Shown here: one piece after another, positions 1-60,650 of the stretch | Numbering within the stretch: position 1 is the first letter of the stretch | Layout of the letters: every line of letters starts with the position of its first letter | Assembly (NCBI RefSeq): GCF_025698545.1 | Contig: NC_068570.1 | Coordinates: 33,685,924-33,749,923, forward strand | Length of the DNA: 64,000 bases | Direction of reading: 5' to 3' | Source: Gossypium raimondii | Taxonomy: Eukaryota > Streptophyta > Magnoliopsida > Malvales > Malvaceae | The notes under the pieces: generated by a model | The model's database searches: none | What the model was told of the DNA's origin: nothing | What the model saw: only the letters and a program-made list of their open reading frames with translations | Program-made: the position numbers and the translations under genes

Positions 1-67
1 ATTTAGTATTTAGTATTTAGTATTTAGTATTATGTATATATGTAATATTTCTATCATGTTCATGTAG

Positions 68-1096
68 TTTCAATGGACACCATACGAGGATCCGGCAGTC
101 CGGGCAGTAATCCCGGAAGAGTTTTTACAAAATACGAATGCTTGGCACGTGAAAGTGGTGTTGATCAACTATGCAACCGTGGAGCCCCACCAGATAGACA
201 GAGTCCTACGACAGTTTGGATGTAGACAATTGATCCCTGCGGACCCTGAGGAGTTTGACGAGCACCACAAAATCGACCTTCGGCTATTAGGTACGGATTG
301 GCCTAGATATTGGTCAGTGTACATAGAAATGTGGGAAAATCGGAATGAATATCTACCTACTCGGGAACCAATCATTGTTCCCGAGTTAGCGTGCGTTCCA
401 GAATACATGCCATGGTTTAGGGCCCATGGGAAGCCGTATTTACTTACGCCGGAGGAGAGGCAGCGGCAAATACGTGTCGGAAGGGAAAGGCGCGGGCCTC
501 TAAATCCAAGGGGACAAGACTACGAGGGCAGCCCCTCAACGAGGCCCAGACATTCACCCGGTTCATCATCAGCGGCCATGCAATCACCGTCCCCAACGAG
601 AGCACCGACGCAGTCACCTGACGCAGCAATTCAACAGATGATACCCACGCATTCACCTTTCCCTATGATGCCAGGTATGTTTCCTACCCTTTATATGTAC
701 CCTAACCCGTACATGTATCCTTTTCCGAATCCTATGGCAGGTTGGAGCCAAATGCCCGGATCAGCTCCATTTCATGTAATGCCGAGCGGACCACCGATAA
801 CTAGGCCAGCGGCGCAGGAGGGGTCCCAAGGGGGGCCGTCGGGGAGCTCTCCTTTTTACCAATCGCCAGCAACGCATGACTTTCAAACTCCGTCGCCGTT
901 CATGATGCAAACACCTCCACATACACTATTTTTTGAAGGTGGATCATCGTCCCAAGTCCTACAACCAGATGCCGAACCGGAAGAACAACAATCACCACCG
1001 GAGAAAGAACAACCGCCGCCGGAAGCTAGAGGAAGGAGGAATCTAGCGCGTAACCGTCGACAGCCGCCATGTGGAACCGAATCCCCCGGTCATTGA
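68..1096 (+). CDS. Plant mobile domain (PMD) protein, last exon, MULE-encoded
   Basis: The exon starts after a TAG acceptor at 65-67. Codons 68-148 are open and in frame with the ATG at 149, so the exon is longer than the ORF from that ATG. It encodes FQWTPYEDPA, then the conserved LRQFGCRQLIP and PEYMPWFRAHGKPYLL blocks at the end of the PMD. A long low-complexity tail rich in Pro, Ser, Gln and Met follows and ends in an Arg-rich NRRQPPCGTE segment. Databases often label such proteins 'serine/threonine phosphatase 7 long form homolog', but no phosphatase motif is visible. PMD proteins occur both as host silencing factors (MAIN/MAIL1) and inside MULEs. The context makes this the transposon form. 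The exon is intact, unlike its three relatives in this window. Confidence 0.78.
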   Translation, partial: FQWTPYEDPAVRAVIPEEFLQNTNAWHVKVVLINYATVEPHQIDRVLRQFGCRQLIPADPEEFDEHHKIDLRLLGTDWPRYWSVYIEMWENRNEYLPTREPIIVPELACVPEYMPWFRAHGKPYLLTPEERQRQIRVGRERRGPLNPRGQDYEGSPSTRPRHSPGSSSAAMQSPSPTRAPTQSPDAAIQQMIPTHSPFPMMPGMFPTLYMYPNPYMYPFPNPMAGWSQMPGSAPFHVMPSGPPITRPAAQEGSQGGPSGSSPFYQSPATHDFQTPSPFMMQTPPHTLFFEGGSSSQVLQPDAEPEEQQSPPEKEQPPPEARGRRNLARNRRQPPCGTESPGH

Positions 1097-1199
1097 CATT
1101 GATTACCGTATTAAAATTTATCATTTGATGTAATGAAATACAAGTTTATGACGATGTAATACACATATAAATTTTTCCAAGTTATTTTGATATTATTTG

Positions 1200-2064
1200 A
1201 TTTAATTATAAACCCTAACACTAACCTAATTCAATTATTATAAAACCCTAACCTAACCTAATTTAATTAAAAACCCTAACCTAACATAATTTAATTAAAA
1301 ACCCTAACCTAACATAATTTAATTAAAACCTAAACTCTAACCTAATTTAATTTAATTAGCCTAAAACCTAACCTAATTTAATTTAATTAAAACCCAAACC
1401 CAATTTAATTTAATTATAAACCCTAACCTAACCTAATTCAATTATAAAACCCTAACCTAACCTAATTTAATTAAAAACCCTAACCTAACATAATTTAATT
1501 AAAACCCTAAACCCTAACCTAATTTAATTTAATTAGCCTAAACCTAACCTAATTTAATTTAATTAAAACCCAAACCCAATTTAATTTAATTATAAACCCT
1601 AACCCTAATTCAATTATAAAACCTAACCTAACATAATTTAATTAAAACCCTAAAACCTAACATAATTTAATTAAAACCCTAAACCCTAACCTAATTTAAT
1701 TTAATTAGCCTAAACCTAACCTAATTTAATTTAATTAAAACCCAAACCCAATTTAATTTAATTATAAACCCTAACCTAACCTAATTTAATTTTAAACCCT
1801 AACCTAATTTAATTTAAAACCTTAACCTAATTTAATTTAAAACCCTAACCTAACCTAATTTAATTAAAAACCCTAACCTAACATAATTTAATTAAAAACC
1901 CTAACCTAACCTAATTTAATTAAAACCCTAAACCCTAACCTAATTTAATTTAATTAGCCTAAACCCTAAACTAATTTAATTTAATTAAAACCCAAACCCA
2001 ATTTAATTTAATTATATAAACCCTAACCCTAACCTAATTTAATTTAAAACCCTAACCTAATTTG
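1200..2064. repeat. Telomere-like CCCTAA/TTTAATTAA satellite block
   Basis: About 860 bp built from CCCTAACCTAA words alternating with TAATTTAATTAAAA. The words form higher-order blocks that restart with 'attataaaccctaac' near 1204, 1412, 1593, 1760 and 2010, giving a period of about 170-250 bp. The block lies between the convergent 3' ends of the PMD and mudrA genes. It is interstitial: unique sequence continues on both sides. Confidence 0.85.
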
Positions 2065-2313
2065 ATAATCCTACTAGTTTGTACCACACTATTTCCGCTT
2101 AATAATTTTACATAAATTGATAATTTGACTAACCATTAACAAAAGTTTTTGGAAACTAATAATTTGACACAGTTTTACATAATGTTGGATTTCGTAAAAT
2201 GTTATGACTTGTACTAACATTTAAGAAATAGTAGTAATTTGGTAATTTAACTAACAATTAATACAATTATCAATTAATAATTGAATAAAATGTAATTGCA
2301 TCAATTATTACAT

Positions 2314-3125
2314 TCAACTATTGCGATTAGGGCATGATCGACTTGTATGGCCTGGGTTCCTACACCATCCGCACAACTTCTGTTGACTGGATGTTTCTCG
2401 GATATCCATATTATTTCGTATTCTAGTGGAGCAAGGTCGACCCTTCGGCTTGCGACGCAATTCTCTATCCGGTAACAGCTTAAAAGGAGCAAGAGATACA
2501 GGTGACCACTTACGTTCATCTGGGACCGGTGGGAAAACGTGTCTCCATACGTGGTACATGTTTTCTAATTTGTACACTTCATCCACATAACTCAGCGGAT
2601 CCAGACGGAGTTTCTGACAGGCTGCAATAACATGAGCGCATGGATAACGAAGTGCGTCGAACTTCCCACAGTCACAAGTCCTGTATATTCGACACCGCTA
2701 CCGAACATAGGCTGTTCCGTATTTTGTAACCCGCTAACCGAGTGTCGGCCAGGGGTCGTGTATACATCTCGAACACCGGACGAAAGTACATCAGTTGGCG
2801 ATGTAAATTGTACATATAACTCAATATAAGTTGCTCCGCTAGCAAGATGAGTTTGCACCATTGCCTCCAAGCTACGAGCACCTTTTATGTCGAACGAGTC
2901 ATATGTCACCGGATCAACAGAACAACAAAATCGATACGTGATTGACAGAACTTTCATTGGCGTCGTTTCGAAGATTTTACGCCTAATTCTTTTACGAAGT
3001 TCTGTCAAATCTATGTTTTGGCTAAATGACAGTCGCACCGTATTCTCCGACAAAAAAACAACACCATTCTCGGTGTGGCAAACCTCACCATCGTAGTAAA
3101 TAACAGCACTAATACGTTCACTCAT
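2314..3125 (-). pseudogene. mudrA-like transposase with the catalytic core deleted
   Basis: The ATG is at 3125. The first ~145 residues are the PB1-like N-terminal part of MULE transposases (VIYYDGEV, then a basic LRKRIRRKIF helix). Near 2690 the sequence jumps to the SWIM zinc finger (CDCGKFDALRYPCAH), read in another frame, then to the C-terminal part and an intact CCHC knuckle (CGWCRNPGHTSRSC). The acidic linker, the FLYWCH/WRKY-like DNA-binding region and the whole DDE domain are missing compared with MULE-B and MULE-C. The joint is out of frame, so the N-terminal frame ends after about 30 unrelated residues. It cannot encode a transposase, but could make a short N-terminal polypeptide of 177 residues. 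Confidence 0.85.
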
Positions 3126-3235
3126 TTTGAAACTCTAACTTTCTTAGCCTCTCTAAAATGTTTCTGCTATGACTTATGCATTCTAAGAACATTTTCTACC
3201 TAATTTTATAGCCTCAGCCCAAACTTGCTACTGTA

Positions 3236-3662
3236 GCAAAATCGCGTCCACGAGGGCACGATTTTACACTATTTGCTTAGAAACGTCAAAAAAATTATTT
3301 CCTACATGACCAACTGTAGCAAAATCGCGTCCACGAGGGCGCGATTTTACAATTTCTTCTCATATAGCATCCTAGTATCAACGATTTTACACTATTTGCT
3401 CAGAAACGTCAAAAAAAATTATTTCCTACATGACCAACTGTTGCGAAATCGCGTCCACGAGGGCGTGATTTCACAATTTCTTCTCATATAGCATCCTGGT
3501 ATCAGCGATTTTATACTATTTGCTCAGAAAACGTCAAAAAAAATTATTTCTCACATGACCAACTGTGCTGAAATGGCGTCCACGAGGGCACGATTTCACA
3601 ATTTCTTCTCTGATAGCATCCTGGTAGAAGCGATTTTATACTATTTGACCAGAAACGTCAAC
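3236..3662. repeat. Subterminal ~125-bp tandem repeat with hairpin core
   Basis: Four units begin with 'atcgcgtccacgagggc' or variants at 3241, 3324, 3448 and 3573, with spacings of 83, 124 and 125 bp. Each contains the inverted pair AAAATCGCG...CGCGATTTT around CCACGAGGG, followed by a shared 'tatttgctcagaaacgtc' segment. MULE-C carries a single diverged unit in the same place (about 40970-41090). The array was therefore amplified in MULE-A. In MULEs such subterminal repeats are candidate transposase-binding sites. Confidence 0.8.
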
Positions 3663-3835
3663 TCGAAATAATTTTTTTCGGGACCCCTAAACCCTAAAAA
3701 AGCCTACACCCTAAACAAAATAATTTTTTTGGGACCCCTAAACCCTAAAAAAGCCTGCACCCTAAACGAAATAATTTTTTTCGAGACCCCTAAACCCTAA
3801 AAAAGTTTGCACCCTAAACCCTAAAACCCAGAAAA
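3663..3835. repeat. Telomere-like CCCTAAACCCTAAAAAAGCC repeats
   Basis: Three ~57-bp units share 'gacccctaaaccctaaaaaag' cores separated by 'aaataatttttttcggg'. They lie between the 125-bp array and the terminal repeat of MULE-A. A counterpart with 'ccctaaacc' words lies at 41150-41640 in MULE-C. Confidence 0.75.
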
Positions 3836-3837
3836 TC

Positions 3838-4097
3838 CAACGTGAAATCTACGTCAAAATCGCGCCCGAAAAACGCGCTACGTGACAGGTCATCGCGTCC
3901 ACGTCAGCGCGACCTGCTGACGTGGAAGGAAATCGCTTCCTCAGGGACGCGATTTCCTTCCACGTCGGCAGTCGCATACCGACGTGACGCTGATGATTCA
4001 TCACGTTCCACATCGCTACCGACGTGGACGCAATTTCAGGGAAAACGGCCCATTCCGGTAAATAATTAAAAAAAGGGCTTTTTTTAGTGTTTTGCCC
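3838..4097. repeat. Right terminal inverted repeat of MULE-A
   Basis: The reverse complement begins GGGCAAAACACTAAAAAAAG, continues into 'cggaatgggcc' and 'gcgtccacgtc', and aligns with the left end of MULE-C at 35176 onward. Inside it is a strong hairpin: arms at 3914-3936 and 3949-3971 pair over 23 bp with one mismatch around a 12-base loop (inner arm GTGGAAGGAAATCGC). Confidence 0.75.
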
Positions 4098-4548
4098 TAA
4101 TGAAAGCATATTTTAACTAAATTGAAAATTTGAATGTACTTTAGATAAAAAAAATAGGTACCATAATAAAAAATCATAAATTAATTCTTTCTTAAATTAT
4201 AATCCAACAATCCATTATAAAATTCTTTCTTAAATTGTCTCTCTTTATGCCTTCAAACATAATAATTTTGAATGCCATAGAAACCATTTTAGTAAACCTT
4301 TTTATTTATTATTTGCTAAAATGTTTAATTTTTTAATTTTCTAAATTTTGATTATTTTTACTCAAATTAATTATATATATTTTTTTAAAAAGTGTGTCCC
4401 GTTTTATTGGACAATTACCTTTGGAGAGTAACAAAATCCAAAAATAAAGTGAAGTCTAGTAGCAATGGTAAATTAACCGTAATCATTCTTTGATTTTCTT
4501 TAAAATTCAAAGCTCCGTTTTCCTTCCCTGTAGCGCTATCCAAGAAAA
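4098..4548. other. AT-rich flank between MULE-A and the orphan exon
   Basis: No coding potential or repeat is visible. The last 100 bases, 'ggagagtaacaaaatcc' onward, could be promoter or 5' leader for the small plus-strand exon that follows. No convincing TATA box can be placed. Confidence 0.3.
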
Positions 4549-4823: not shown

Positions 4824-4827
<4 letters not shown>

Positions 4828-8467: not shown

Positions 8468-8702
8468 GGGTTTTTTACAAAAATATTATAAAAAAATAAA
8501 AATTTATCAAAATATTATAATTTTTTTGTTTATCAAAATATATAAATTTTTTTATTTACTAAAATATATCAAAAAAACCAAAAAAAATCAGATCAATGTG
8601 ACAATTAACTGGTTACGCCAATGGGATTAGCGGCACCAAAGGTGCCAAAACCATTGGCGCACCAATGGTGCCAATACCATTGGCGGCACCAGTTAATAAT
8701 AG
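8468..8702. repeat. Left terminal inverted repeat of MULE-B
   Basis: About 235 bp: 'aaaatatataaattt' blocks, then 'atcagatcaatgtgacaatt', then a GC-richer stretch with repeated 'ggtgccaataccattggc' words. It matches the reverse complement of 15853-16096 nearly throughout. The innermost part has internal short inverted repeats around GGCACCAATGGTGCC. Confidence 0.9.
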
Positions 8703-8723
8703 GGGGGGTCGGTGGTGGGGGGC

Positions 8724-8929
8724 AGAAAGAGAGGGAAAGAAAGAAAGAAAGAGAGAAAGAAAGGAGAGGGAAGAAAGAAAAAGAAGGAAAGAAAGGGAAA
8801 GGAGAAGAGAAAAAAGAAAGAAAGAAGAAGAAGAGAAGGAAAGAGAAGAAAAAGAAAGAAAGAAGGAAAGAAAAGGAAAGGAGAAGAAAAAAAAGAAGAA
8901 GAAGGGAAGGAAGGAAAAAAGAAAAAAGG
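8724..8929. repeat. 206-nt uninterrupted homopurine tract
   Basis: From 8724 to 8929 every base is A or G, mostly GAAA and GGAAA words. The tract lies just inside the left terminal repeat of MULE-B. A shorter pyrimidine-rich counterpart (15722-15763, continuing to about 15815) lies just inside the right repeat, so the inverted symmetry extends past the classical TIR. Long Lys/Glu/Arg ORFs over the tract are artefacts of composition. Confidence 0.95.
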
Positions 8930-8935
8930 TAATTT

Positions 8936-10183
8936 TATTTATAAATTTAATTTTTCTGTAATATTTGTATATTTAAAATTTATGTTATTTCATTATAGTT
9001 ATTTTATTATTTTATTTAGCATATATATTTTATGAAATATGTTTAGAAAGAAAAAATAATGGTATGTACATTGTATGTTGATTAGGGATTTTTTATGAAA
9101 TTTATTTAGGAATTTGAAATTAAAATTTTAGGAAAATGGCATTAAAAGTAAAATGACAAAGAAGTATGTTTAAGAAAACATAAAATACTGAAAAGAAAAA
9201 GCGGAATTGTATATTTATTGAAAATAATAAAATGCGGAAAAAGTGCAAAAATGCACATGTAATAGATTTCAAACATAATAAATTGAAATAATGTAAAATT
9301 ATAAAATAAAAAGTTACGATATTTTAAAAAATAAAATACGGATAAAAAACGAAGAAATGGTCAAGTAAGAGTGTATTACTTTTTTAAAAACATCAATAAT
9401 ATAATTTATACAAATAATTGAAACAAAATGTCTTGAAATAATATAAAATTATAAAATACGAAAATAATATAGTTTTATTGAAAGTAATAAAATCGGAAAA
9501 TAATAATACAACCAAAGGCGGGGAAAGGGTTTATTATGCTTTTTAGCAAAATATTACAAAAAAAATACCAAAATTTTATAAACTTTTTCTTTATTTACCA
9601 AAATAATAGAGGAAAAAAAGGGTGATGGAGGGTAAAAAAGCGGCACAAATATGTGGCTAATTACCTTTTAATCTCTGCTTATTTATTATTTTTATTCCCC
9701 TTAACACACTAAATTAATAAATTTCAAACATGATGCAATTGAAATAATGTAAAATTATAAAAGACTAAGTTTATGATATTTTTAAAGTAATAAAATGCGG
9801 AGAAAAAATACGAACAAATGGCAAAAGTAAAAGTGTATTACTAACTTTTATAAAATTCAGAAATAATTAATACAAAATATTTCAAAGAAAATGTCTTGAA
9901 ATATTATAAAACAATAAAATACGAGAATAATATAATTTTATTTAAAGTAATAAAATCGAGAAAATAATACGAGCAAAAGGCGGGTAAGGGTTATTTTTTA
10001 CACCAAATTAATTTAAGCAACACACTAGAGTAATAAATTTCAAACATTATGCCTTTGAAATAATGTAAAATTATAAAATTAGAAATTATGATATTTTTAA
10101 AGTAATAAAATGCGAAGAAAAAATACGAATAAATGGTCAAGTAAGATTTATTTACTAACTTTTTTCAAATTGCGAGCATCGCA
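8936..10183. repeat. AT-rich tandemly duplicated 5' region of the MULE-B PMD gene
   Basis: A block with 'gaaataatgtaaaattataaa', 'aaagtaataaaatgcgg', 'aatgtcttgaaata' and 'aaaggcgggg' occurs from about 9270 to 9540, again from about 9720 to 9995, and in part from about 10030 to 10150. No coding signal is seen. The region contains short segments resembling the terminal repeat ('tttaccaaaat'). Confidence 0.7.
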
Positions 10184-12182
10184 ATGGCTCGATTGATCTG
10201 AACCGATATTAGACACATATCGATGCGCTAATAACGCGGTATGATTTATTATTTGTTAATCGGAGTTCTATTTATTTAAAAACGATATCGCAGATATACA
10301 AATAAATTATGTTATCGTAATATTTTTCGTAATTTTACACTATCGGGACTCGTTCCGAGTATTAAGGGGCCGTGTCAGTGCTTTAAAGATAGCTCTGGAT
10401 GCACGATTTATGTCGTACCTGGAGCTAGCTGGATTTGGGTCAGTAGCATTGATCCGGTCCTCCAACTTGCGGTTAGATTTATTATCTGCGCTAGTGGAGC
10501 GGTGGCGTCCGAAGACCCATACTTTCCATTTTCCGTGCGGGGAGTGCACGGTGACCTTGAAGGATGTTGCAGTGCAGCTTGGGCTCCCAATTGATGGGAG
10601 TCCCGTAACGGGAGTATCTTCATTCACCGATCCGGCTACAGTTTGCTATCAACTCCTAGGAGAGTCACCAGAGGATGGTGATAAATATTTTTCCGGCATA
10701 AAATTTACATGGCTAAAAGCCAAAATATGTGGATTATCAGCGACCGCCAGTGAAGGTGAGCTGATGTGCGCTGCTCGAGCGTACATCATGCATATGATAG
10801 GGGCAGTACTCATGCCTGATGCAAACGGCGACAGTGTGCATTTGTCATATTTGCCCCTGCTAGCTGATTTCTCCACTGTTAGATCGTACAGCTGGGGTTC
10901 TGCCATTCTAGCGACGCTGTACCGGGAGCTTTGTCGGGCGACGAAGCCGTAAGTTAAAGACATCGGCGGATGCCTCATACTGCTGCAGTCATGGGCGCTT
11001 TATCGGATGCCGTTTTTGGCACGCTTTACTTACCAACCCTATCTGTATCCACTGCCACTCAGGTGATAAAAATATTACAAATTGTCATTATTTGTCCCGA
11101 ATAATATATATGGTAATGTTACCAACCCTAAACCCTGTACTAATTTTTGTAGGTGGACGACCCGTCCAGGCATCGGGAAGTCGAGTAATGTCCCGATATA
11201 CCGCCTCAGGATTGAACAGCATGCCCGGGAAGGGGTAAGCTGCTATTCTATTATTAATGACATGTATTCTATTTCTATATCTTACTCACATGTTATCGGT
11301 CTAACTCGTTACAATGTTATTACTCATGCAGTTTATATGGATGCCGTATCGGAGGCCGAAAATTTTGAATGTTGTACCCTCGTCTGCACTCGTTGATTCC
11401 CACATATGGTGTACTAACACACCAATAATAAATTTCAACGTCGTCGAGTGGTATCACGGCGACCGGGTGCTTCGGCAGTTTGGGTGCATCCAACCTATCC
11501 CGGATCCGCCGTGCCAGTTGGGGGATGATCACGGCTTGACAAAGAGAGGAAGAGTTCAATTGGACTGGGGAATATATCACCGAAAATACGTCGCACTGTG
11601 GAACAATCGATTGCGCCAAATTCCTCACATGGTTATGGCTACCGACCTGCAACCATCATTGGAGTATGCACAATGGTACCATAGTTGCGGGAAGCCGTAT
11701 TTACTTGGAGCGCAATCGACTATAATCCCCCCTACGTGCAGCAAGTTTGGGGATCAGACGCAGCGAGCGCGCTAGATGCGGAGCCGATGGCATATTATTC
11801 TCCGCAATGTGCGAGCGAGCAGACCCCACCGGATCCCAGACAATCACAGTTAAATATGGATTCACATGTCTATCGTCCGGATTCGGTGGGCGGTGAATAT
11901 TATCCGAGCTTCGCACAGGGCGAATACGCCTACAACTTTGAACTGTTTGGATCCCCCTGGCCGCAGTACGGCATGCTTGGCCCGTCCGACACGTATCCGC
12001 AACATTATAGGACTCATGATGGTTCAAGTTCGTCGGCGGCGAACGAGCAACAAGACCTTTCCTCTATGTTTTCCACGCCCCCACCTGCGGACGATGAGGA
12101 TGTTAGTCGTCGCCCAGGCCGTGAGCGTCGACCTCCGCGTAGGTATACCCCCCGGACAACACCATCGAACCATCAAATTTAG
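10184..12182 (+). pseudogene. PMD protein gene of MULE-B, disrupted
   Basis: A short first exon starts at 10184 (MARLI) and ends at a GT near 10239. It carries TGA where relatives have an Arg codon. The main exon, from about 10348, encodes the PMD core (MSYLELAGFGS, VERWRPKTHTFHFPCGECTV, AARAYIMHMIG, YSWGSAILATLYRELC), then has a TAA-type stop at 10950 and continues in sense to about 11072. Further exons at ~11152-11235 and from 11331 carry FIWMPYRRPKIL and WYHGDRVLRQFGC. A one-base frame change in a C6 run near 11730 leads into the acidic, Pro-rich C-terminus that ends at 12182. Known PMD proteins are plant nuclear factors or transposon passengers; here the terminal repeats place it in the MULE. 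It is a recognisable but dead copy. Confidence 0.85.
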
Positions 12183-12492
12183 GGGTTTAATGCACTTTTT
12201 CCATAAATGCCATATTTGTATTTTAGTTATTGCTTACTTCTGAATTTTATGTATAAATATCCATTACCACGACTTTTTTCATTATATTAAAGCTCAATCA
12301 AATTATGAATGCCTCTATTTTCGATATAATCTTAATAATTCCACAACGCTCACATGGTTTTTTTTAGCATTTAAATGGTAATGTTACAATTTGGATACAA
12401 TTTAAGCGTAAGCATAAGCCGAATAAAAAAAATCGATATAATCTTAAAATTACCTTTTATAACAATATACATAAAAATTTTGGGTCAGTAGC
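12183..12492. other. AT-rich spacer between convergent PMD and mudrA genes
   Basis: About 300 bp separate the two stop codons and must hold both 3' ends. Candidate AATAAA-like signals occur but no clear motif stands out. The equivalent interval in MULE-A is filled by the telomere-like satellite. Confidence 0.5.
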
Positions 12493-15171
12493 TCAATTTC
12501 GCCCTGATCCCGACGACTGCCCGACATGAAAGTTTCGGTTAGGGCTTTTATTCCGGCTATGACCACTTAACCTACATATTCCACAACGCTTTTCGTCAGA
12601 TTTCTCCCTAATGTCCATCTCATTAAGGATTCTGCTTGACTGCGGACGACCTCTTGGATTCCTCCGTAGCCCTGCGTCTGGGAGAAGCTCAAAAGTGATC
12701 GGCGGCACCTCCCACGTAGATAGGTCCGGCAAGACGGGGAACTCATTCTCCCAGACACGCAATGTGCACTCCAGCGTGTACACATCATCGACATATTGTT
12801 CAGCATCAAGGTTGACTTTAGCACACGCTGCCACGACATGCGCACAGGGATAATGAAGTGTTTTGAACTTCCTGCACTCGCACCGTCTGTTCCGGAGATC
12901 AACTCCGTAGGACCTAGTTCGACGACCGATGTTCTCAGTAACTTGAAACGTTTCCAGTCGTCGTGAATACATTTCCACGTTCATTGACCTCGCCAACCGA
13001 CGGTTTACGACCATTGCATCCCTCACATGTTCGACAAACACATGTCCCGCCTGAATCTGGTCGACTTGCTGCCCCCCATTCTTGGCATCAACGTAGCCAA
13101 CCTGTAGAAAGTAGCAGAAAATACCAATGCAATCGGAAGATGACGTGTTTTCAACAAGACAGCGTTGATCCCCTCGACTAAGTTTGTGGTCATGTGGCCA
13201 TAACAAAAGCCCTCGTCAAAACTTTGAGCCCACTGCCACGGCTCCATTGTGTGCAACCATTGCCGGAAAGATGTGTTTGTCTGCCCCTCCATGTCACTCT
13301 TAAGTCGGTTCATTCTTTGTTGGAAAATATGTGGCTCTAACTCGTACGCTGCATACGTATTAACGAAAAATAAGTTCTAGTAAGTCGATAACATCAAACA
13401 TTACAACTTAGATTGAAAAGATAAGGTTATCATTTACCCATTGCCACTACTTGTCTCTTCTAGTCTGCAATCTTGTAATCTTTATGGAAGTTTGACGCAA
13501 TGTGACGAATGCAGTAAACGGATCTACATGGCACACCGGAACGCCTAATAGCTGCAATTAAACCCTTCCCTCTATCGGAGATGATGCAAATGTTATCGTT
13601 CCTAATAACATACCTCCGCAAATTTGTGAGGAAGAATTCCCAAGACTCCATGTTCTCTTTATCTACGATAGCGAATGCTATCGGGAGCACGTTTCTGTTA
13701 CCGTCTTGAGCGACTGCAAGAAGCAGTATCTGTGTATATTTTCCATACAACCAGGTCCCATCCACCTGCACAAGTGGCTTGCAGTGGGGAAATGCCCGCA
13801 CACATGGATCGAACGTCCAGAACATCCGATGGAAAATCCTTTTTGCCGATTGTAACTACTCATCCGGGCCGTAATATGGACTTGTCTGCAACTCAATCAT
13901 AGTCCCCAGTACGTACTCCTGCATAGCAGCTATCCAACCTTGAAGCTCGTTATACGATGAATCGTAATCCCCATACAGTTGCTCCATCGCCATCTGTTTA
14001 GCTACCCATGCCTTCCGATATGAGACTCGATACGGGAATCGTGCTTGCATTTTCGCAATGAGTACCGAAACTCTAATGGTCGGCATATCCTTCACTATTG
14101 GCATGATACACGTACAAATAGTTTTCGAATCAAGTTTTCCATGATCTTTTGTCATACGTGTTGATGTGCATATATGAGGACCAACAAATTTTCGTATCTC
14201 CCACATCTGAGAACTTCTAATGAATGTAGCTCGTACCCGCCAATTGCAGCCTTCTGCTGCCTTCCAACACTCCCCAACATATATTGTCGGAGTAGAGACG
14301 GAGACTTTATAATCCACCGATATCTTCATGCTGTACCGTTTATGGCATATACACACTCTTCTTTACAGCTGAATCTCTGGCCTATGAATAACTCATCATC
14401 ATCAGATGTTACGGCTAGCCCGTGAGAATGAACTATTTCAGGGTACTTCAGAAACTCAGATACATACACTGCGTCGGGGTCTATGAGTGACATGTGTGGC
14501 CCAAGATTATTGTGTATCACAATACGCTGCATTTGCTCCCCGACCGAAGAAGCGTTAATGCCTTCATCGTTGTTGACATCTTCAGCGTCAATATCATCAG
14601 GTACATCGTCCACATCGGGATCAGCGTCATTATCGACCTCTTCATCCCAATTATCGCCACCACCTTCTTCTTCGCCGGCACCATTTTCTTCACCACCAAC
14701 CATGTCAACATCGGCTGTAATATTCAGGTCGATACCGATCCCACCCATAGTTGATTCACTATCAACGTATGATATTGGAGCCACCATTCGCGGTTCTTCA
14801 GCCCCGTCTTCTTCATCAGATGCATTTTGCTCCATACCGACTAACTCAGCAAATAAGTGAATCGGTGCATTCTTCTCACTCCCATTCCCACAGTAGAGAT
14901 CGACCATTGTCTCCACGTCTTTGTCGTCTACAAGTTCCATTTTGACAAATTTGACCGGATTTGTCAAAACTGGAAACTTGTAGAAAATTTTTGATATCCT
15001 TCTCCCACAACGTCTATGGATTTTTGCATTAATCCTTGCCTTCATTTCATCGAACGATACATTTCTATTAAATCTCATTGCTATTTGTTGCCGACATTCA
15101 AATACATATCCAACACTTGTTGTCAATATGACTCCATCGAAATAAACGCATACAAGAAACTTAGCATCCAT
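12493..15171 (-). pseudogene. mudrA: mudrA-type MULE transposase of MULE-B, disrupted
   Basis: The ATG is at 15171. In order: PB1-like N-terminus; a long acidic linker (many Asp/Glu, ~14560-14830); DNA-binding region (YVGECWKAAEGCNWRVRA); MULE DDE domain with first Asp in VQVDGTWLYGKY, second in IISDRGKGL, C..H in CIRHIASNF and Glu in NLVEGINAVL; SWIM finger (CECRKFKTLHYPCAH); and a terminal knuckle whose last Cys is Ser (CGICRLSGHSRNKS). An 89-bp intron lies at 13437-13349. Defects: a one-base loss near 14345, stops at ~13856 and ~13458, and a frameshift in a G6 run near 13080. All catalytic residues survive, so the decay is mild. The gene would have moved the element by cut-and-paste. Confidence 0.88.
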
Positions 15172-15531
15172 CTTCAATATTTAATCTGTCAAATAAGAAA
15201 AACAAAATCTCATAAAAAATCTCGAACGGTAACTGAATTACTTAAAAAAATTTTATACTCAAAATAATACACAAAATAATACACACTAAAATTATTAATT
15301 TTATACTCAAAATAATATTAATAATTTTATACTCAAAATAATACACACTAAAATTATTAATTTTACTAAAAATAATAACTAACTAACTAACTATAATAAT
15401 AATACTAGTTTTTACTAACTAGTTTATTTTCAGTAAATAAAATAATAAGTAACCATAATAATAATACTAGTTTTACGCTAATAATAACATTACTAAGTTA
15501 CATCTTAATACATTAATAACATCTTAATACT

Positions 15532-15609
<78 letters not shown>

Positions 15610-15720
15610 AATTAATACTATTATTTTGAGTTTTATTAATCTTAATAACTAAACTAAAACAAAAATATTACAAAATATACAAAATAATAACAAAAATATA
15701 ATCAATTATTTTTAAAAAAT
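15172..15720. other. AT-rich 5' flank of mudrA with (AAC)11(AAT)14 microsatellite
   Basis: This must include the mudrA promoter. It holds short repeats of 'aaaataatacacactaaaatta' near 15255-15365 and a compound microsatellite at 15532-15606: eleven AAC units followed directly by fourteen AAT units. No TATA box can be chosen with confidence in such AT-rich DNA. Confidence 0.6.
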
Positions 15721-15852
15721 ACCTCCTTTTTCTCCTCTTTTTCTCTCTTTTTCTCTTCTTTTCCGCGCCAACTCTTCTTCTTCTTTTTTTTTCTTTTGAT
15801 TTTTCTCTCTTCATTTGGATGAGGTCGTATTTATAATATGAGTGGTGCATTA

Positions 15853-16096
15853 ATTAGTATGGCACCATTGGTGCCGCCAATGGCATTGGCACCATTGGTG
15901 CCGCTAATGGTTTTGGCACCTTTGGTGCCGCTAATACCATTAGGCGTGACCAGATTAATTGTCACATCGATCTGATTTTTTTGATTTTTTGGTTTTTTAT
16001 ATATTTTGGTAAATAAAAAATTTATATATTTTGGTAAATAAAAAAATTTATAATATTTTGGTAATTTTATTTTTTATAATATTATTGTAAAAACCC
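15853..16096. repeat. Right terminal inverted repeat of MULE-B
   Basis: Reverse complement of the 8468-8702 repeat, with shared words 'ggcaccaaaggtgccaaaac', 'tcagatcgatgtgacaatta' and 'ttttttatttaccaaaatat'. Scattered single-base differences and small gaps mark its age. Confidence 0.9.
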
Positions 16097-35166: not shown

Positions 35167-35175
35167 GGTAAATAA
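35167..35175. repeat. Left 9-bp target-site duplication of MULE-C
   Basis: GGTAAATAA, directly outside the GGG terminus at 35176. It is identical to 41818-41826 on the other side. Confidence 0.95.
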
Positions 35176-35520: not shown

Positions 35521-35616
35521 CTTAAAAAAGCTTTAATTTTTTTAATGATTTTAAAAAAAGCTTTAATTTTATTTTTTTGAATTTTTTTAAATCATAAAAA
35601 TTTGATCGTATTAGCA

Positions 35617-38014: not shown

Positions 38015-40861
38015 TCAAATATTGTGATTTCGGCATGATTGGCTTGTATGGCCTGGGTTCCTACACCATCCGCACAACTTCTGTTGACTGGCTATTTTTT
38101 GGATATCCATATTGTTACGTATTCTAGTTGGGCAAGGTCGATCTTTTGGTTTGCAACGCAATTCTCTACCCGATAATAGCTTAAAGCGAGCAAGCGATAC
38201 AAACGACAACTTACGTTTATCTGGGACCGGTGGGAATACGTGTCTCCAGACGTTGTACATGTTTTCTAATTTGTACACTTCGTTGACATAGCTCATCAGA
38301 TCCAAACGGGGATTCTGGCAAGCTGCAATTACATGAGCGCATGGATAAAGAAGCACGTCAAACATCCTATAGTTGAAGTCCTATTTCGCAAGTGTACATG
38401 ATATTACTCGCTGATAACACCTTGGTGCGGTCTGTCAAACTCTGTCACGCAAAACCATAAGTTCTCTCGATCATGACACACTGTGTGCATGGTGTTCGCC
38501 CGTGCCTGCACCATACATGGCCTCCCTGCATCTGGCCTGCATAACTCGCTGCTTACTATGGAAATAGCGCCGCTAAACGAAAATATGTTTCTCGCACAAC
38601 CGATGTTATCGGTAGATGGCGCGTTCCTTTTAGAACAGAATTTATGCATTCAGCCAGGTTTGAGGTTATATGACCATATCGTAGGCCGCCGTCGTATGCT
38701 TGTGCCCACTGTTCGAAAGGTATGTTACAAAGGTAGTCCGCTCCTTCGCCGTTAATTGAACATAAAACTACCAACATCTCATGAAAACGATCTTTATTTA
38801 TTTCATACCCTGCCAATATAAGTTCATAGCGAATATTAAATACCACTATTTCATTTTGAATAAATTCAAAATGACAAACGAAATTATATTAATAGAGATT
38901 AAATACCCATGTTGGTCACTTGTCGTCGTTCACTCTTAGATGGATATTACCTGTAGTAGTTGGATGCAACGTGGCTTAGGCAATATCGATGGTGTGTGCG
39001 TTGCCATAAGCTTTCCTGTCGATCAATTGCAGTTAGTATTTCGGTGCCCCGATTTGAAATAACACAGATATCAGGTTGGGGACACACATGCCTCATTAAC
39101 TTAAATAGAAAGAAATCTCAGTCATTAGTTGACTCCCCCGGTGTTATTGCAAACACAATTGGAAGAATTCTCCCACTGCCATCCTATACCACTACTAGCA
39201 ATAGCCGATGGGTATATCTACCAAACATAAAGGTACCGTCAATTTGTACCAATGGCTTGCAGTATGGAAATACGTCTCGGTATTGCTTAAAGGTCCAAAG
39301 CAGGCGTTTGAACACTTGACATCCACGTAGCAATCGGCCGTTGTAGTATGCATGTTCCGTTTCAAGGTCTATTATGCAACCTAGGACGTATCTCTCTAGC
39401 ACTTGACACCACTGCCATATTTCATTATATGAAGTGTCCCACCCACTATGCAACTTCTCCAATGCCTTCTACTTAGCTATCCAAGCCTTGCAGTAAGAGG
39501 GCGTGTACCCCATTCGGCTACGAATATTGGCAATTAAGACCGGCACTGAAGTATTGGAATTTGCCTTCACCGTGGGTAGTATCAAGCTAGCTAACATAGC
39601 TGAATCCATCTTGGGATGATCTTGTGAAATACCTATCAACGGGGTATGTTAAATAATACAACATTATATAATAACAGTATTATTCAGAAACCCTAAATAC
39701 TATACCTGCACCATATGTATGTGAACCTTTGTACTTTTTTATCTCCCACAACCCTGTCCTTTTCCTCAACGAGGCGTAGATTTTTCATGAACATGTACCG
39801 TCTTGCACTACACACTTCGCCTTAAACTTATCAACTTTGAATTTAACCACGTGGTAGTTAACGCTGTTATTGATGCTATGTTGTTTCAATGCACCAATAA
39901 AACTATCCTTGTTGGAAAACTCATTACCAACTTCAAATTCACCCGAATTCAGTAGCGAACTTGTACGATCACGCTACCTGTGTGGTAGATTTGGAAACTC
40001 CAACGCATCATCTGTAGACAGATCGACATTATGCATGTGGGTTGGAGGTGAGTATGCCCTGAATCGTGGATATTCTTCTTCATCTGAACCCTCTTCAACA
40101 TCTTTAGGTTCGGTTGGAATAGGCTCCGGTTCAGAAAATAATGCAAATTCAACATTATCGGGCCCGGGCTCTCGAGGTGGATCCACATCGGAGTCATCTT
40201 CTAACCCACCATCATCTGCAACGTACGAGGTCCCCTTACCGGTGGACGTCGTAGGGAGTACATCATCCCTTTTTCTGGGCGTTTCGTAACGTCCCCAATT
40301 GGATGTAGATTGCCAACCACTAGAAGTTGATGTCGTTCCCCAGTACGTATTTCCAGCATCAAACATCGACTCACCGAGGTGCATGTCCCATCCACTGACA
40401 GAGTGTCGTGCAGGGGTTGTATATTTCATACTGCTACCAAACATGGGCTATTCCATGTTTTGTAACCCACTAACCGAGTGTCGGGCAGGGGTCATGTATA
40501 CCTCTCAAATAGCAGTCGCAAGTGCATTATTTGGCGATGTAAATTGTACATATAACTCAATATAGGGTGCTCCACTAGCGAGATGAATCTACACCATTGC
40601 CTCCAAGCTACAAGCACCTTTTATGTCGAACGAGTCCTATGTCACCGGATCAACAGAAGAACAAAATCGATACGTAATAGACAAAACTTTCATTGGCGTC
40701 GTTCCGAATATTTTACGCCTAATTCTTTTACGAAGTTCTGTCAAATCTATGTTCTGGTTAAAAACCAGTCGCACTGTATTCTCCGATAAAAAAACAACAC
40801 CGTTCTCGGTGTGACGAACCTCACCATCATAGTAAATAACAACACTAATACATTCACTCAT
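38015..40861 (-). pseudogene. mudrA: mudrA-type transposase of MULE-C, disrupted
   Basis: The ATG is at 40861. Visible in order: PB1-like N-terminus (VIYYDGEV, LRKRIRRKIF); a repeated PARHSVSG segment; acidic linker; DNA-binding region; DDE domain with first Asp in VQIDGTFMFGRYTHRL, second position Asn (VISNRGTEILTAI, 39067-39030), C..H in CLSHVASNYY and Glu in NLAECINSVL; a SWIM remnant; and an intact CCHC knuckle (CGWCRNPGHTSQSC). Many stops and frame changes occur. Loss of the second catalytic Asp, a G-to-A change, alone would abolish activity. The C-terminal ORF lacks the first SWIM cysteines. Confidence 0.88.
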
Positions 40862-41651
40862 CTTCAATTTCTATCCTTCTTAGCCTCTCTAAATTTTTTT
40901 GTTGTAACTTATGCAATCTGAGAAAAAAATTTGCCTCATTTATAGCCTCAGGCCAAACAGGATCTACTGTAGCAAAAGTGCGTCCACGTGGGAGCTTCTT
41001 TCAGTACTTTTGCTGACAATGCATCCTGCTTAAAGCGTTTTTGACACTATTTGCTTAGAAACGTCTTCTCGAAATTATTTTTTCAAGAGCCACTGTAGCA
41101 AAAGAGTGTCCACGTGGGAGCTGTTTTTAAATTAACAAATAATTTAATTAAGTAACCCTAAACCCCAAACCCTAATTTATTTGAGTTTTCTTTAAAAACG
41201 CTAAACACTAAACCCTAATCTAATTTTTTTAAAATTTATAATTAATTTACTCAAGTAACCCTAAACCTTAATTTATTTAATTTTTCCTTAAAAACCCTTA
41301 ACACTAAACCCTAATCTAATTTTGTTAAATTTATAATTAAATTACTCAAGTAACCCTAAACCCTAGTTTATTTGATTTTTCCTTAAAACCCTTAACACTA
41401 AACCTTAATTTGATTTTTAAAATTTTTTAATTAATTTACTCAAGTAACCTTAAACCCTAATTTAATTGATTTTTTCTTTAAAAATTATAAACACGAAACC
41501 CTAATCTAATTTTAAAATTTTTAATTAATTTAATTAAGAAACTCTAAACCCTAATCCCTTATTTATTTAATTTTTCTTTAAAACCATAAATCTAAAAACC
41601 CTAAAACCCTAACCCTAAACCCTAAACAAAAATCTTAAACTCTAATCGCAG
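40862..41651. repeat. Subterminal and telomere-like repeats of MULE-C
   Basis: 40970-41090 holds a diverged copy of the MULE-A subterminal unit ('ctgtagcaaaagtgcgtcca', 'tatttgcttagaaacgtc') and a second partial copy at 41094. From 41150 to 41640 there are five ~90-bp blocks of 'actcaagtaaccctaaaccc' plus 'ttaaaacccttaacactaaa', ending in a short perfect CCCTAAACCCTAAA run. Confidence 0.75.
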
Positions 41652-41817: not shown

Positions 41818-41826
41818 GGTAAATAA
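41818..41826. repeat. Right 9-bp target-site duplication of MULE-C
   Basis: GGTAAATAA, identical to 35167-35175. Confidence 0.95.
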
Positions 41827-53600: not shown

Positions 53601-54655
53601 TCAAACTTCAACCAATTTGTTCTGGCCCTTTGTTCCCAATAGCATCCGTCTTTTTCAATCTCAAAATTCAAACTTATTTTTGTATCGATCAATTTAGCTA
53701 AAGTCTTATCATCCCTTTCAACTTCAACCAACTCCCCAAGCTTTTCTGTAAGAACCCGTTTAGTTTTTTTTCCTGTTAATTTAAATTTTCCTAGCCCATT
53801 CCTTCAAACCTTCTTTTAAATTCTCCAGTCTCTGTAGCAATTCCCCTGAAGATTTCTCCTACAAACACTTAACCACGTTTATAAAGGTTTCCTCCATTAA
53901 CCACCAAGCTTCAAATCTAAAATTTCTGTTCCATACTTGATCTTCATATTTCCTAGTATCTATGAGAAGAGGGCAATGATCTGAAAACGTATGAGTAAGA
54001 TGTTAGACTTTCGCCTCTGGAAACAGCACAATCCACTCTGTGTTAGCAACTCCTCTGTCAAGTCGTTCTTGAATATTTGTCTCCGGTAAATTACCTCTCT
54101 CCCAAGTGAACCAGCTGCCTTCAAATCCCACATCATATAGTTGACAATCTTCTAGTGTTTTCCAAAATAATTCCATCCTTCTTTCATCTCTAGGTAGCCC
54201 TCCTTTTTTCTCAAATCCATACATGATTTCGTTGAAATCTCCACACACCAACCAAGGAATTACCTCCCCTACAGCTAATCTCTTCAAAACTTCCCATGAA
54301 TTGTTCCTATCCTGTACATATGGGGAACCATAAAAACCTGTGAATCTCTATTTTACTCCTTTTTCTTTATCTTCAACTAACATGTCAATATGTCTTTTAG
54401 AAAAACTTCAGAGCATTATATCCATGTCAGTTCTCCATGCTAAGCACAATCCTCCTCTTGTGCCTTCAGGCTCTACTTCAATCCCGTTTAAGAAACCACA
54501 TCTTCTACGAACTATTTTCATCTATTTTTTACTAACTTTTGTCTCTATGAAGTAGACTATTTGGGGATTATTTATCTTCAGTAAATACTGAAGTCTTTTA
54601 ATCGTCCGTTGTCTCCCCAAACCACGGACGTTCCAACTTAAAATTTTTATTGCTC
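50700..54655 (-). pseudogene. LINE ORF2: endonuclease, reverse transcriptase, RNase H
   Basis: The expected start codon near 54645 is ATA, followed by the usual opening KILSWNVRGLGRQRTIKRL. The AP-endonuclease keeps LVCGDFNEIM, GSWFTWERG and RLDRGVAN (54287-54003). RT (53731-52515) keeps NIVLIPKV, FKPISLCNVLYKIIAKVIAN, GLRQGDPLSPFLF and the catalytic LFADDCILFGG. A zf-RVT block (51727-51206) has CARCYLAIEESAHVFRECP. RNase H (51121-50726) has IYFDAAFNNR and FTAEAYACLEG. About six stops and several frameshifts separate these parts. RNase H at the C-terminus is typical of plant L1. Confidence 0.88.
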
Positions 54656-58164: not shown

Positions 58165-58480
58165 TGAAATCCGTTATATACTACGATGGTCAAATTTGTA
58201 ATACAGAGTTTGGGGTGGAGTTTGTGAGTGAAGTCTGTGGAATTAACGTTCAATAGTACCATTGAAATGTGTGAGCTAGGGACTAGAATCAAAAGGAAAG
58301 TCAGTAGATCGAGCTGGGGAAGAATTCGATGTGATTAGCGAGACGCATCTTGATACGGTCATATCATCGCACATCTCAAGCGGAAATGTTGTTATTGAGT
58401 TATATGTCGAGTGCGTCGATGCTGATGGATCTGGCCCATCTTTGACCTCAGGTGTGGCAAATATGGGTACATAGATAGTA
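58165..58480 (+). pseudogene. mudrA N-terminal relic of MULE-D
   Basis: In successive frames: VIYYDGQICNTEFGVEFVSE, VELTFNSTIEMCELGTRIKR and ETHLDTVISSHISSGNVVIE. These are the PB1-like N-terminal pieces seen in MULE-A, B and C. The gene stops there, with no DDE domain. The partner PMD relic follows in convergent orientation, so this is the same layout as the other MULEs, reversed. Confidence 0.75.
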
Positions 58481-58689
58481 ATAATGCTGTTTTAAGAACA
58501 TACAATTTATTTAGTTTTTGGTAACAAGGTAAATAAAAAAAAATTCATATTCAAAACAATATGTCAATAAAAAAATTTGACATTTGTTATTTAACGATGA
58601 AACATAAATAGTAATAATGAGAAGTGGTTTGTTTGAATGAATAACCTCGGTTTTTTTTATTTATGACATGTCTATATTAAAATAATTAA

Positions 58690-60650
58690 AATAAAAAATA
58701 CAATCAATGGTGTCGTCGGGGAGAATGTGTGCCACAAGGTGGTGGATGGCAGTTGCGTGAAGGATTTTTGCATACAATCGGTCGTACCACCGGAGGTGTA
58801 TCCGGAGGTGTCGACTTGTAGACTTCCTCCTCGTTGTCATCATTTTTTGAGTACGTAGCTAGCACAAATTCCTAGGTGATGGTATCTTCAGGATCAACAC
58901 CATCATTATCTTTCTCTGTGGTCGATTACTGTGTCGTCCTCGCTTGCCATCGTGTATCTGCCACTTCCTCGTCCACCGGTTCTGACGATGAACCATTCTT
59001 GTAAAATAGTGATGCACGCGGTGTTTGGGTCACTATAGGTGTGAAACTGATGCGAACCCGACCGCATCATGTTACGACACAACTTGATGCTACCGAGATT
59101 GATCCAAACTCGAGGGGCCCAAGTGCAAAATGAAGTTTTTAATTATGTCATAGTTTGCACATCATTAATATATGTTCTGCATTTAATAAAGTCATGGATT
59201 ATGTAAGTTTCATGTTAGTTAAGTTTGCATCATTAAATTAAGTGAAGTTAGTTTAATTATGTAACTTTCATGTTAGTTAAATTTGCATTTCAAAACCATG
59301 CATTTAAGCATCTTAGTTTAATAAATGAGTTGCTGGACATTTATTCATCTCATCTTAGTTTAATTAATAAGTGTTTTTGTTGAACTTTATTTAATAAGTG
59401 TTGTTCTTAATTAATCTAGTTCCTAGGATTACTTATTGATGCATGAGTTAAGTTGATTTAATTATGCTTCTTTAATTAAACTAGTTCTTTGGGATAATTA
59501 TTGCATATGTTTTTAATTCATTTATTTAAGTAAGTAATAATGTGTGTTATGTTTAATAAGTGTTTTCATGTGTTTAATTAATTCATTTTAATGTGTTTAT
59601 TGCAGGTGACTTTTTAGCTCATAACTCAAGAACTCAAGGCTATTATAAATTGAATTAAGTGGCTGTTCAAGTTATTTTCAGTTATAAATTAAAGGGGCTG
59701 TTATAAAGAAGGCTTAAACATCATTAAAGGAGTTTTTAAGAGCATTTTTATGCCCTTTAAAATTCAGCAGCAACCTTTCTTCTTCCAGCAGTTTTTGATC
59801 TTTTAAGAGAATTAATCAAGCCTTTAAAATGTCATTAAGGAGCTGGTTAATAAGTTGGTATCTATTTAGCTGGCCAATGACAACTCAAGAGTCATTTTCA
59901 AGCAATTAAAGACATTCAAATCAGCTGAATTGAAGTGACTTCAAGGAAGGAGTTATTTGGTTCAAGCATAAGGAAAAGGCTTGAGTTTTTATGGCACATT
60001 AAGTTGGATGTTTTTGACCATTCAGCTACCTTATTCTAGCACTATAAATAGATGTAATCAACCTTAGAAAAGAAGACTTTTTGCTGAATATATATGAAAT
60101 CTTTGAATTGTGAGTTATCCAATTCTCTTTGTTCTTACGGAATTGATTTGACTTATCAAGCTTAGCTTGTGGCGTCTATCCATTTCTTGTTTTCGAACTT
60201 ATCACTTTCATATTGTGGCGTTCATCATATACCAAGGTTCCTATCATCTTGATAGTGGGTCGAGGTCTTTTCTTTGTTGTTTTCCTATACACCTAAGAGC
60301 TACTTTGAGACTCGGGTCAACAAAATTTTCCATTCGTTGTTAAACCTATTTCCCTTTTAAACTTTTGTTTGTAGCCTTTCTTCTATTTTGTAGAAACGAA
60401 CTTAGCCTTACTCAAATTCACGATCGGGAAACAAACGACTCGAATCAATCACGAAACGAGATCGTATCAGAAACCATAAGGTGCCCCAAATCCTAGGTAC
60501 ATTGGAAAGGTACTGGGTATTGACAAGACCATCGACTGCTACATGTGCGCTTGCATCAGTGGCAGTGGGTACACCGAAATCTGTGCAAGGGTGTAGTATG
60601 TGGGGGACGTCGGTGGAGTGAAATATGTAGCTGGAAACACAAAAATTTAC
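58690..60650 (-). pseudogene. PMD C-terminal relic of MULE-D, split by a solo LTR
   Basis: 60650-60470 encodes a Pro/Ser/Tyr-rich stretch (ATYFTPPTSPTYYTLAQISV ... GFGAPYGF). 59047-58690 continues with TPIVTQTPRASLFYKNGSSS, matching the MQTPPHTLFFEGGSSS type of ending in MULE-A. Ignoring the insertion and one copy of its target duplication, the frame runs straight across the joint. There is a stop in the upstream part (after MQAHM). The PMD core itself is absent; a second retroelement begins just beyond 60650. Confidence 0.75.
59048..60469 (+). mobile_element. Solo LTR (1422 bp) inside the MULE-D PMD relic
   Basis: Begins TGATGCGAAC and ends GATCGTATCA. It is flanked by a perfect 5-bp target duplication GAAAC (59043-59047 and 60470-60474). 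A TATA box (TATAAATAG) at 60043 suggests plus orientation. No ORF. The empty site gives a continuous PMD reading frame, confirming the borders. Confidence 0.93.

What the first reader, a model, noticed from the sequence alone, without database searches (positions are those of the whole stretch)
1..60650. Four copies of a PMD + mudrA convergent two-gene transposon in 64 kb
MULE-A, B, C and the relic D all keep the same order: a plant-mobile-domain gene and a mudrA gene pointing at each other. A/C and B have unrelated terminal repeats, yet the gene pair is retained. PMD proteins are known both as host silencing factors (MAIN, MAIL1) and as passengers in Mutator-like and Ty3 elements. Retention across TIR families suggests the PMD protein does something for the element, for example anti-silencing or transposition help. 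That function is an inference and, as far as I know, undefined.
Basis: partly seen in the sequence, partly recalled or inferred. Interest (0 to 1): 0.78.

Follow-up and report, generated by a model that had tools for sequence, protein, structure and literature searches.

The report
Two-gene cotton transposons carrying PMD
This stretch of a cotton chromosome holds four decayed copies of a jumping gene that carries, beside its own transposase, a second protein related to plant gene-silencing factors, and comparing many copies indicates that natural selection has kept that second protein.

Summary
B (8468-16096) and C (35176-41817, perfect 9-bp target-site duplication) are whole MULEs with convergent PMD and mudrA genes. 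A is cut by the window edge and lacks the transposase core; D is a two-fragment relic. None is intact. The genome is Gossypium raimondii. In the B family 60 of 60 PMD-mudrA neighbours are convergent, about 3 kb apart (0.65 expected). PMD and mudrA trees share 8 of 12 splits (B) and 7 of 7 (C); shuffles reach at most 3 and 4. The PMD domain is under purifying selection (dN/dS slope 0.13 in B, 0.29 in C; mudrA 0.20 and 0.51; PMD tail 0.57 and 0.63). The kind is published: Dupeyron 2019 lists PMD in antisense for most MUDR-group MULEs, and Ikeda 2017 suggested anti-silencing. What PMD does remains unshown; anti-silencing is my leading guess. Unexpected: 11 of 15 A/C loci carry five or more AAACCCTAA motifs, in all 170 in PMD sense and none antisense. 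This recalls VANC target arrays, but similar clusters are common in this genome.

The parts
1..4097 (.). Element A (A/C family), left part outside the window; right end near 4097 (TIR-like 3892-4097)
   Evidence: blastn to the C TIR and fuzzy end motif
68..1096 (+). A: PMD gene, last exon with domain end and proline-rich tail
   Evidence: PF10536 E 3e-11
1197..2093 (+). A: array of about 28-bp AAACCCTAA-bearing units between PMD and mudrA (27 AAACCCTAA in 1-4300, all PMD sense)
2317..3134 (-). A: mudrA remnant, N-terminal and C-terminal pieces joined, catalytic core absent
   Evidence: tblastn
8468..16096 (.). Element B, TIR to TIR (7629 bp), flanking 9-mers do not match
   Evidence: TIR 8468-8691 / 15869-16096, 88%; flanks read
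9247..10159 (+). B: tandem repeats between left TIR and PMD (repeat families 9247-10122; about 157-bp units 9703-10159)
10410..12180 (+). B: PMD gene; exon ends near 11062 and 11235, exon starts near 11154 and 11333 (read by eye); premature stop at 10950-10952, frameshift near 11710
12496..15180 (-). B: mudrA; MULE domain in 13463-13855, SWIM finger in 12496-13215; stop 13856-13858, frameshifts near 14335 and 13110; intron near 13377-13439 (read by eye)
35167..35175 (.). Element C: left target-site duplication GGTAAATAA
35176..41817 (.). Element C, TIR to TIR (6642 bp)
35617..37679 (+). C: PMD gene, several exons (first exon read by eye), 5 premature stops in the aligned domain
38018..40867 (-). 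C: mudrA, 12 premature stops in the aligned part
41161..41613 (+). C: array of about 94-bp units with AAACCCTAA, between mudrA and right TIR
41818..41826 (.). Element C: right target-site duplication GGTAAATAA
58155..58411 (+). D relic: A/C-type mudrA N-terminus
   Evidence: tblastn E 9e-12 over three pieces
58707..58838 (-). D relic: A/C-type PMD C-terminal tail
   Evidence: tblastn E 2e-6

Best explanation
These are decayed copies of two families (B and A/C) of Mutator-like DNA transposons whose complete form has two genes pointing at each other between the terminal inverted repeats: a PMD gene and mudrA. Shown here: the pair lies inside TIR- and 9-bp-duplication-bounded units, is convergent, has related gene trees, and its PMD domain has been kept by purifying selection. 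Inferred: each gene is driven from a promoter in or near its own TIR, as in maize MuDR, with PMD in the position of mudrB. PMD is a helper the element needs to keep spreading. My leading guess (about 0.45) is that it acts on host chromatin against silencing, for instance by interfering with the host MAIN/MAIL1/PP7L pathway. That it is some kind of selected helper I put at about 0.9.
For: Convergent pairing in 60 of 60 neighbouring hits, median 3.05 kb apart, 0.65 expected by chance. Perfect 9-bp target-site duplications in 13 of 30 loci examined, 4 more with one mismatch; 12 of those 13 hold both genes, L018 PMD alone. Shared tree splits 8 of 12 (B, 15 copies) and 7 of 7 (C, 10 copies); 0 of 2000 shuffles reach either. 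Slope of dN on dS: B PMD 0.13 (0.09-0.18), B mudrA 0.20 (0.16-0.26), C PMD 0.29 (0.18-0.38), C mudrA 0.51 (0.38-0.67), against PMD tails 0.57 (0.37-0.83) and 0.63 (0.41-0.73) and a neutral placement expectation of 0.74-0.97 from six sampled pairs per bin. Positions of one PMD intron and one mudrA intron agree between B and C (read by eye). Maize MuDR has two convergent genes with TIR promoters (passages of PMC3440606). Host PMD proteins MAIN and MAIL1 act in silencing (passages of PMC5418596 and PMC7156037).
Against: No function was measured. Within subgroup B1 alone PMD is not more constrained than mudrA (slope 0.32 against 0.21), and the C mudrA slope (0.51) is hardly below the PMD tails, so the C estimates are weak. 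In one search synonymous divergence of PMD is about twice that of mudrA in most comparisons between subgroups, so some recombination or replacement is possible. The C family gave no distance correlation with all 10 copies (r 0.06, p 0.28), only after dropping one or two long branches. TE PMDs are only 20-27% identical to the long-frame cotton PMDs L001-L003, so interference with MAIN/MAIL1 is a long reach. Both structure models were poor. One fetched locus (L015) has PMD and mudrA on the same strand and four of 20 have no mudrA.
Confidence: 0.55

Rival explanations
1. PMD is a transposition or integration cofactor, a functional stand-in for MURB, acting with the transposase on DNA ends rather than on chromatin.
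For: Same position and orientation as mudrB in MuDR. Conservation of the PMD domain together with mudrA fits a partner of a conserved enzyme better than a fast-evolving arms-race protein; VANC proteins have highly variable regions (passages of PMC5735166).
Against: No interaction data. Host PMD proteins are known from silencing, not from DNA joining. mudrB is reported only from Zea (PMC3276141), and Table 1 of PMC6446971 lists MULE groups without PMD, so PMD is not needed by MULEs in general.
Confidence: 0.3
2. PMD is a passenger: a captured host fragment that rides along without serving the element.
For: MULEs often capture host gene fragments (passages of PMC6446971 and PMC13317346). Most of the copies compared carry stops in PMD.
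Against: dN/dS slopes of 0.13 and 0.29 against 0.57 and 0.63 for the tail of the same gene. Uniform orientation in 60 of 60. Stops are also frequent in mudrA.
Confidence: 0.05
3. PMD was acquired separately by the B and the A/C families, or repeatedly, from host genes or Gypsy elements.
For: Ikeda 2017 infers two independent captures of genic PMD-C by MULEs, as fusions, in grasses and Amborella. B and C TIR bodies are unrelated.
Against: None of the four other cotton PMDs in the tree (L001-L003 with long frames, L004 interrupted) falls inside B or C; they are split off with support 100 by a branch of 1.96 substitutions per site. Since those four were the only outgroup, this excludes recent capture from them but does not test single acquisition. 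Positions of one intron in each gene match between B and C by eye. I raised this from 0.15 to 0.25 on rechecking what the tree tests.
Confidence: 0.25

Closest known systems
MUDR group (group 50) and neighbouring plant MULE groups of Dupeyron et al. 2019 (PMC6446971, passages and part 1 of section 6)
   Same: Plant MULEs with TIRs of 30-320 bp, 9-10 bp duplications, SWIM finger and PMD 'in antisense for most of them'
   Different: In the parts I saw there is no selection test, PMD-transposase tree comparison or array description; placement of the cotton families in group 50 was not tested
PMD-MULE fusions of grasses and Amborella (Ikeda et al. 2017, PMC5418596, abstract and passages)
   Same: PMD inside a MULE; anti-silencing suggested
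   Different: There a fusion with the transposase; here a separate gene in the opposite direction, in an eudicot, far from the long-frame PMDs of the same genome
Maize MuDR (PMC3440606 and PMC3276141, passages)
   Same: Two convergent genes between TIRs of about 215 bp, one of them mudrA
   Different: Second gene is mudrB, reported only in Zea, not PMD
VANDAL21 / VANC (Hosaka et al. 2017, PMC5735166, passages)
   Same: MULE with an accessory gene; same-orientation motif arrays in noncoding DNA that differ between relatives
   Different: VANC not PMD; VANC binding and demethylation are shown, nothing comparable here

Membership tests
Mutator-like element (MULE) | MULE / Transposase_mut domain | tested here: met
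   PF10551 E 3e-17 and PF00872 in B; also L029
Mutator-like element (MULE) | SWIM zinc finger and MuDR DNA-binding region | tested here: met
   PF04434 in B; PF03108 above cut-off in L026, below it in L029
Mutator-like element (MULE) | Long TIRs and 8-11 bp target-site duplication | tested here: met
   B TIR about 230 bp, C about 160 bp; perfect 9-bp duplication in 13 of 30 loci, C among them; B's flanks do not match
PMD-bearing MULEs of the MUDR group | PMD gene antisense to the transposase | tested here: met
   60 of 60 pairs; 15 of 20 fetched PMD loci convergent, 1 same strand, 4 without mudrA
PMD-bearing MULEs of the MUDR group | Transposase falls in group 50 of the published tree | not tested
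   No comparison with the published alignment was made
MuDR | Convergent two-gene layout | tested here: met
MuDR | mudrB as second gene | tested here: not met
   The second gene is PMD (PF10536); a direct comparison with mudrB was not made
MuDR | Promoters in the TIRs | not testable with these tools
   Needs transcript data
VANDAL/VANC anti-silencing system | Accessory protein that binds element motifs and removes DNA methylation | not testable with these tools
   Only motif arrays seen
VANDAL/VANC anti-silencing system | Non-TIR MULE | tested here: inconclusive
   The cotton families have TIRs. A review calls VANDAL non-TIR (PMC13317346), but Table 1 of PMC6446971 gives VANDAL TIRs of 46-174 bp

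The most novel reading that the evidence does not exclude
The PMD gene and the noncoding arrays form a target-addressed anti-silencing system parallel to VANC: A/C elements accumulate same-strand AAACCCTAA (telobox-like) motifs, B subgroups accumulate their own units, and PMD, directly or through host telobox-binding proteins, uses these arrays to keep the element's chromatin open.
Probability: 0.1. Interest if true: 0.75.

Novelty: new member of a known kind. Interest (0 to 1): 0.42.

Why it matters
PMD proteins sit on both sides of the transposon-host conflict, and why transposons carry them is open. In my searches (one library, listings and passages) I saw no test of whether transposon-borne PMD is under selection. 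The data here say it is, about as strongly as the transposase, and that the two genes have related histories. That turns a published speculation into a testable claim and names a copy-rich cotton system for testing it.

Tried and rejected
Structure: two AlphaFold2 jobs on PMD (39 and 31 sequences) gave mean pLDDT 44.6 and 47.6, too low for a fold search, so none was run. A profile search of solved structures gave only three matches at E 0.03, to peptide synthetase modules, taken as chance.

A supposed third, intronless PMD type (suggested by 450-670 aa frames) was wrong: the five loci fetched are ordinary B-type.

VANC21's motif YAGTATTAY (motif seen) occurs 0-6 times per B element against shuffle means of 0.4-0.7, and 0-2 times per C element against 0.2-0.4. 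I take it as weak and probably compositional.

Genome-wide specificity of AAACCCTAA arrays: the three-motif pattern has 3008 + 2931 matches, many overlapping, against 1 + 1 for the reversed control. Only the first places (chromosome 1, up to 13.1 Mb) are listed. They form about 17 clusters, of which one lies 2.3 kb downstream, same strand, of the only A/C PMD exon in that stretch. So clusters are common outside the listed PMD loci (150 scored of 5239 candidates), and I cannot say what share are MULEs.

The A/C-type mudrA search never ran, so pairing counts from two independent lists exist for B only.

Counting dN and dS on inner branches through ancestral sequences was not possible; pairwise counts were used instead.

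Rows left out: L015 and L020 from the B selection and tree sets, L018 from all mudrA sets, L023 from the Mantel tests, A and L010 from the C sets; other copies with under half of a gene's codons were dropped from that gene's set.
Full report
WHAT IS THERE. The window lies in a 750.8-Mb plant genome at G000:C6:33685924-33749923. Named database hits and matching chromosome lengths (for example 60402689 for C6) identify it as Gossypium raimondii. PMD and mudrA were found facing each other in A, B and C by hmmscan and tblastn. B runs from 8468 to 16096 between TIRs of about 230 bp at 88%; its flanking 9-mers do not match (read). C runs from 35176 to 41817 with a perfect 9-bp duplication GGTAAATAA. 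A is cut by the window edge and has lost the transposase core. D consists of a mudrA N-terminal fragment on + and a PMD tail fragment on -. That is consistent with a convergent A/C-type pair whose middle is gone, but it is thin. No copy is intact.

IS IT A REAL UNIT. I searched the genome with B's mudrA core (135 scored of 4313 candidates) and with B's first PMD exon (150 scored of 4414), and compared coordinates only. Sixty pairs lie within 12 kb, all 60 convergent, median distance 3.05 kb (range 1.2-7.2), with 0.65 pairs expected under uniform placement. 75 of the 135 mudrA hits had no PMD in the list, which is cut, so 60 of 135 is a lower bound. An earlier pairing with 117 Pfam PMD hits gave 17 of 17 convergent. 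Of 20 loci fetched by PMD hit, 15 hold a convergent pair, one (L015) has mudrA and PMD on the same strand, and four have no mudrA within 10 kb. The 8 loci fetched later (L029-L036) were chosen because a pair (five) or an open PMD frame (three) was already listed there; all 8 have PMD and mudrA on opposite strands. In 30 loci examined for ends, 13 have a perfect 9-bp duplication, 4 have one mismatch, 5 have two or three, and in 8 no end pair was found. Twelve of the 13 hold both genes; L018 has PMD alone. Both genes therefore move together inside one TIR-bounded unit.

TWO FAMILIES, ONE LAYOUT. The first PMD exon is about 45-52% identical between B and A/C copies, and mudrA 23-48% depending on the part. 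The TIR bodies show no significant similarity, but the outermost bases are alike (GGGTTTTTTACC, GGGCAATTTACC). The PMD intron after ...PLxxR and the mudrA intron after ...MG lie at the same residue and phase in B and C (read by eye). In a PMD tree none of four other cotton PMDs (L001-L003 with long frames, L004 interrupted) falls inside the B or A/C families; a branch of 1.96 substitutions per site, support 100, separates them. Because those four are the only outgroup, the tree excludes recent capture from them but does not test whether B and A/C acquired PMD once; Gypsy PMDs were not available. A shared ancestral pair is still the simplest reading.

CO-INHERITANCE. PMD and mudrA trees share 8 of 12 splits in B (15 copies) and 7 of 7 in C (10 copies); the best of 2000 label shuffles reached 3 and 4. 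Distance matrices agree in B (r 0.90, p 1e-4, 14 copies; r 0.74, p 7e-4 within subgroup B1, 10 copies). In C they do not with all 10 copies (r 0.06, p 0.28), but do without L011 (r 0.76, p 0.004) and without L011 and C itself (r 0.38, p 0.02). Halves of mudrA against each other, a control, gave r 0.62 in B1 and 0.63 in C. Between subgroups of B, synonymous divergence of PMD is about twice that of mudrA in most comparisons. Recombination, partial replacement or regional rate differences could explain that, and I did not resolve it.

SELECTION. Copies decay after insertion, so I used the slope of dN on dS over all pairs, with codon bootstrap. PMD domain: 0.13 (0.09-0.18) in B (16 copies, 118 pairs) and 0.29 (0.18-0.38) in C (13 copies, 78 pairs). 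mudrA: 0.20 (0.16-0.26; 15 copies, 105 pairs) and 0.51 (0.38-0.67; 10 copies, 45 pairs). PMD tail beyond the domain: 0.57 (0.37-0.83) and 0.63 (0.41-0.73) (11 copies each). Random placement of the same substitutions gave 0.74-0.97 (six sampled pairs per bin). Within B1 alone PMD is 0.32 (0.21-0.41) and mudrA 0.21 (0.14-0.28). The C mudrA slope is hardly below the tails, so the C family is the weaker case. Pairs are not independent, and stops and gaps were masked, so the numbers are estimates. The contrast between domain and tail in one gene is the strongest control.

HOW IT MOST LIKELY WORKS. Passages on maize MuDR describe two convergent genes with promoters in the TIRs (PMC3440606). The cotton elements have the same geometry with PMD where mudrB would be; TIR-driven expression of both genes is inferred. 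What PMD does is not shown. Host PMD proteins act in silencing, and Ikeda 2017 and a 2021 review suggest that transposon PMDs counter it (passages). I give anti-silencing about 0.45 and a transposition cofactor about 0.3. The conserved domain does not look like a rapidly changing specificity factor; the fast tail might be.

AN UNEXPECTED FEATURE. A/C loci hold arrays of AAACCCTAA: 11 of 15 loci have five or more, 170 in PMD sense and none antisense in total, against 4 sense and 18 antisense in 18 B loci, flanks included. In whole elements the Markov expectation is about 0.1. The repeat unit differs (about 28-29 bp between the genes in A, L024, L027 and L028; about 94 bp next to the right TIR in C; 22-24 bp in L012), but the core and strand do not. 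Of the four A/C loci below five, three (L011, L026, L035) seem to lack the stretch between the genes and the fourth, L010, has no mudrA; L012 lacks that stretch too but has five elsewhere. Of nine B elements run, three B1 copies (B, L025, L033) have about 157-bp units and the three B2 copies (L013, L017, L019) have 19-48 bp units, unrelated, between left TIR and PMD; L022, L030 and L032 show neither. Hosaka 2017 describes same-orientation motif arrays that vary between relatives as VANC targets (passages). The likeness is only a lead: the three-motif pattern has 5939 matches, many overlapping, in this genome, and I could not tell how many belong to MULEs.

WHAT IS KNOWN ALREADY. Table 1 of Dupeyron 2019 lists PMD in antisense for most of the MUDR group and PMD in other plant groups. 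Ikeda 2017 describes PMD-transposase fusions in grasses and Amborella and proposes anti-silencing. So the cotton elements are new members of a known kind. What is added is the pairing count, the end structure, the tree comparison, the selection estimate and the arrays.

Noticed in passing
window 1197-2093, 41161-41613; L006, L007, L008, L024, L027, L028, L034, L036: Same-strand AAACCCTAA (telobox-like) arrays in A/C-family elements, with different repeat units at different places in the element
   Followed up: partly
L013, L017, L019 against window 9247-10159, L025, L033: Subgroups of B carry unrelated tandem arrays between left TIR and PMD (19-48 bp units in B2, about 157 bp in three B1 copies) although their genes are related
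   Followed up: partly
L013/L014/L017/L019 against the other B loci: Synonymous divergence of PMD is about twice that of mudrA between subgroups in most comparisons; recombination or regional rate difference not resolved
   Followed up: partly
L009:2971-3684: PMD exon without stops, about 44% identical to B PMD, on the transposon side of the PMD tree, no mudrA within 10 kb; possibly a domesticated gene or another element type
   Followed up: no
window 6094-8078 (-): Two long open frames, one with a polyproline stretch, between A and B, no Pfam match; resembles CHUP1 from memory only
   Followed up: no
window 50729-54347 (-): LINE-type retrotransposon remnants: RVT_3, zf-RVT, RVT_1, and an endonuclease match below its cut-off
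   Followed up: partly
window 48880-49281 (+): NAD-dependent sugar epimerase fragment
   Followed up: no
window 30293-30923 and 62634-63264: Inverted 73%-identical copies of a stretch that encodes a retrotransposon gag at 62808-63215
   Followed up: no
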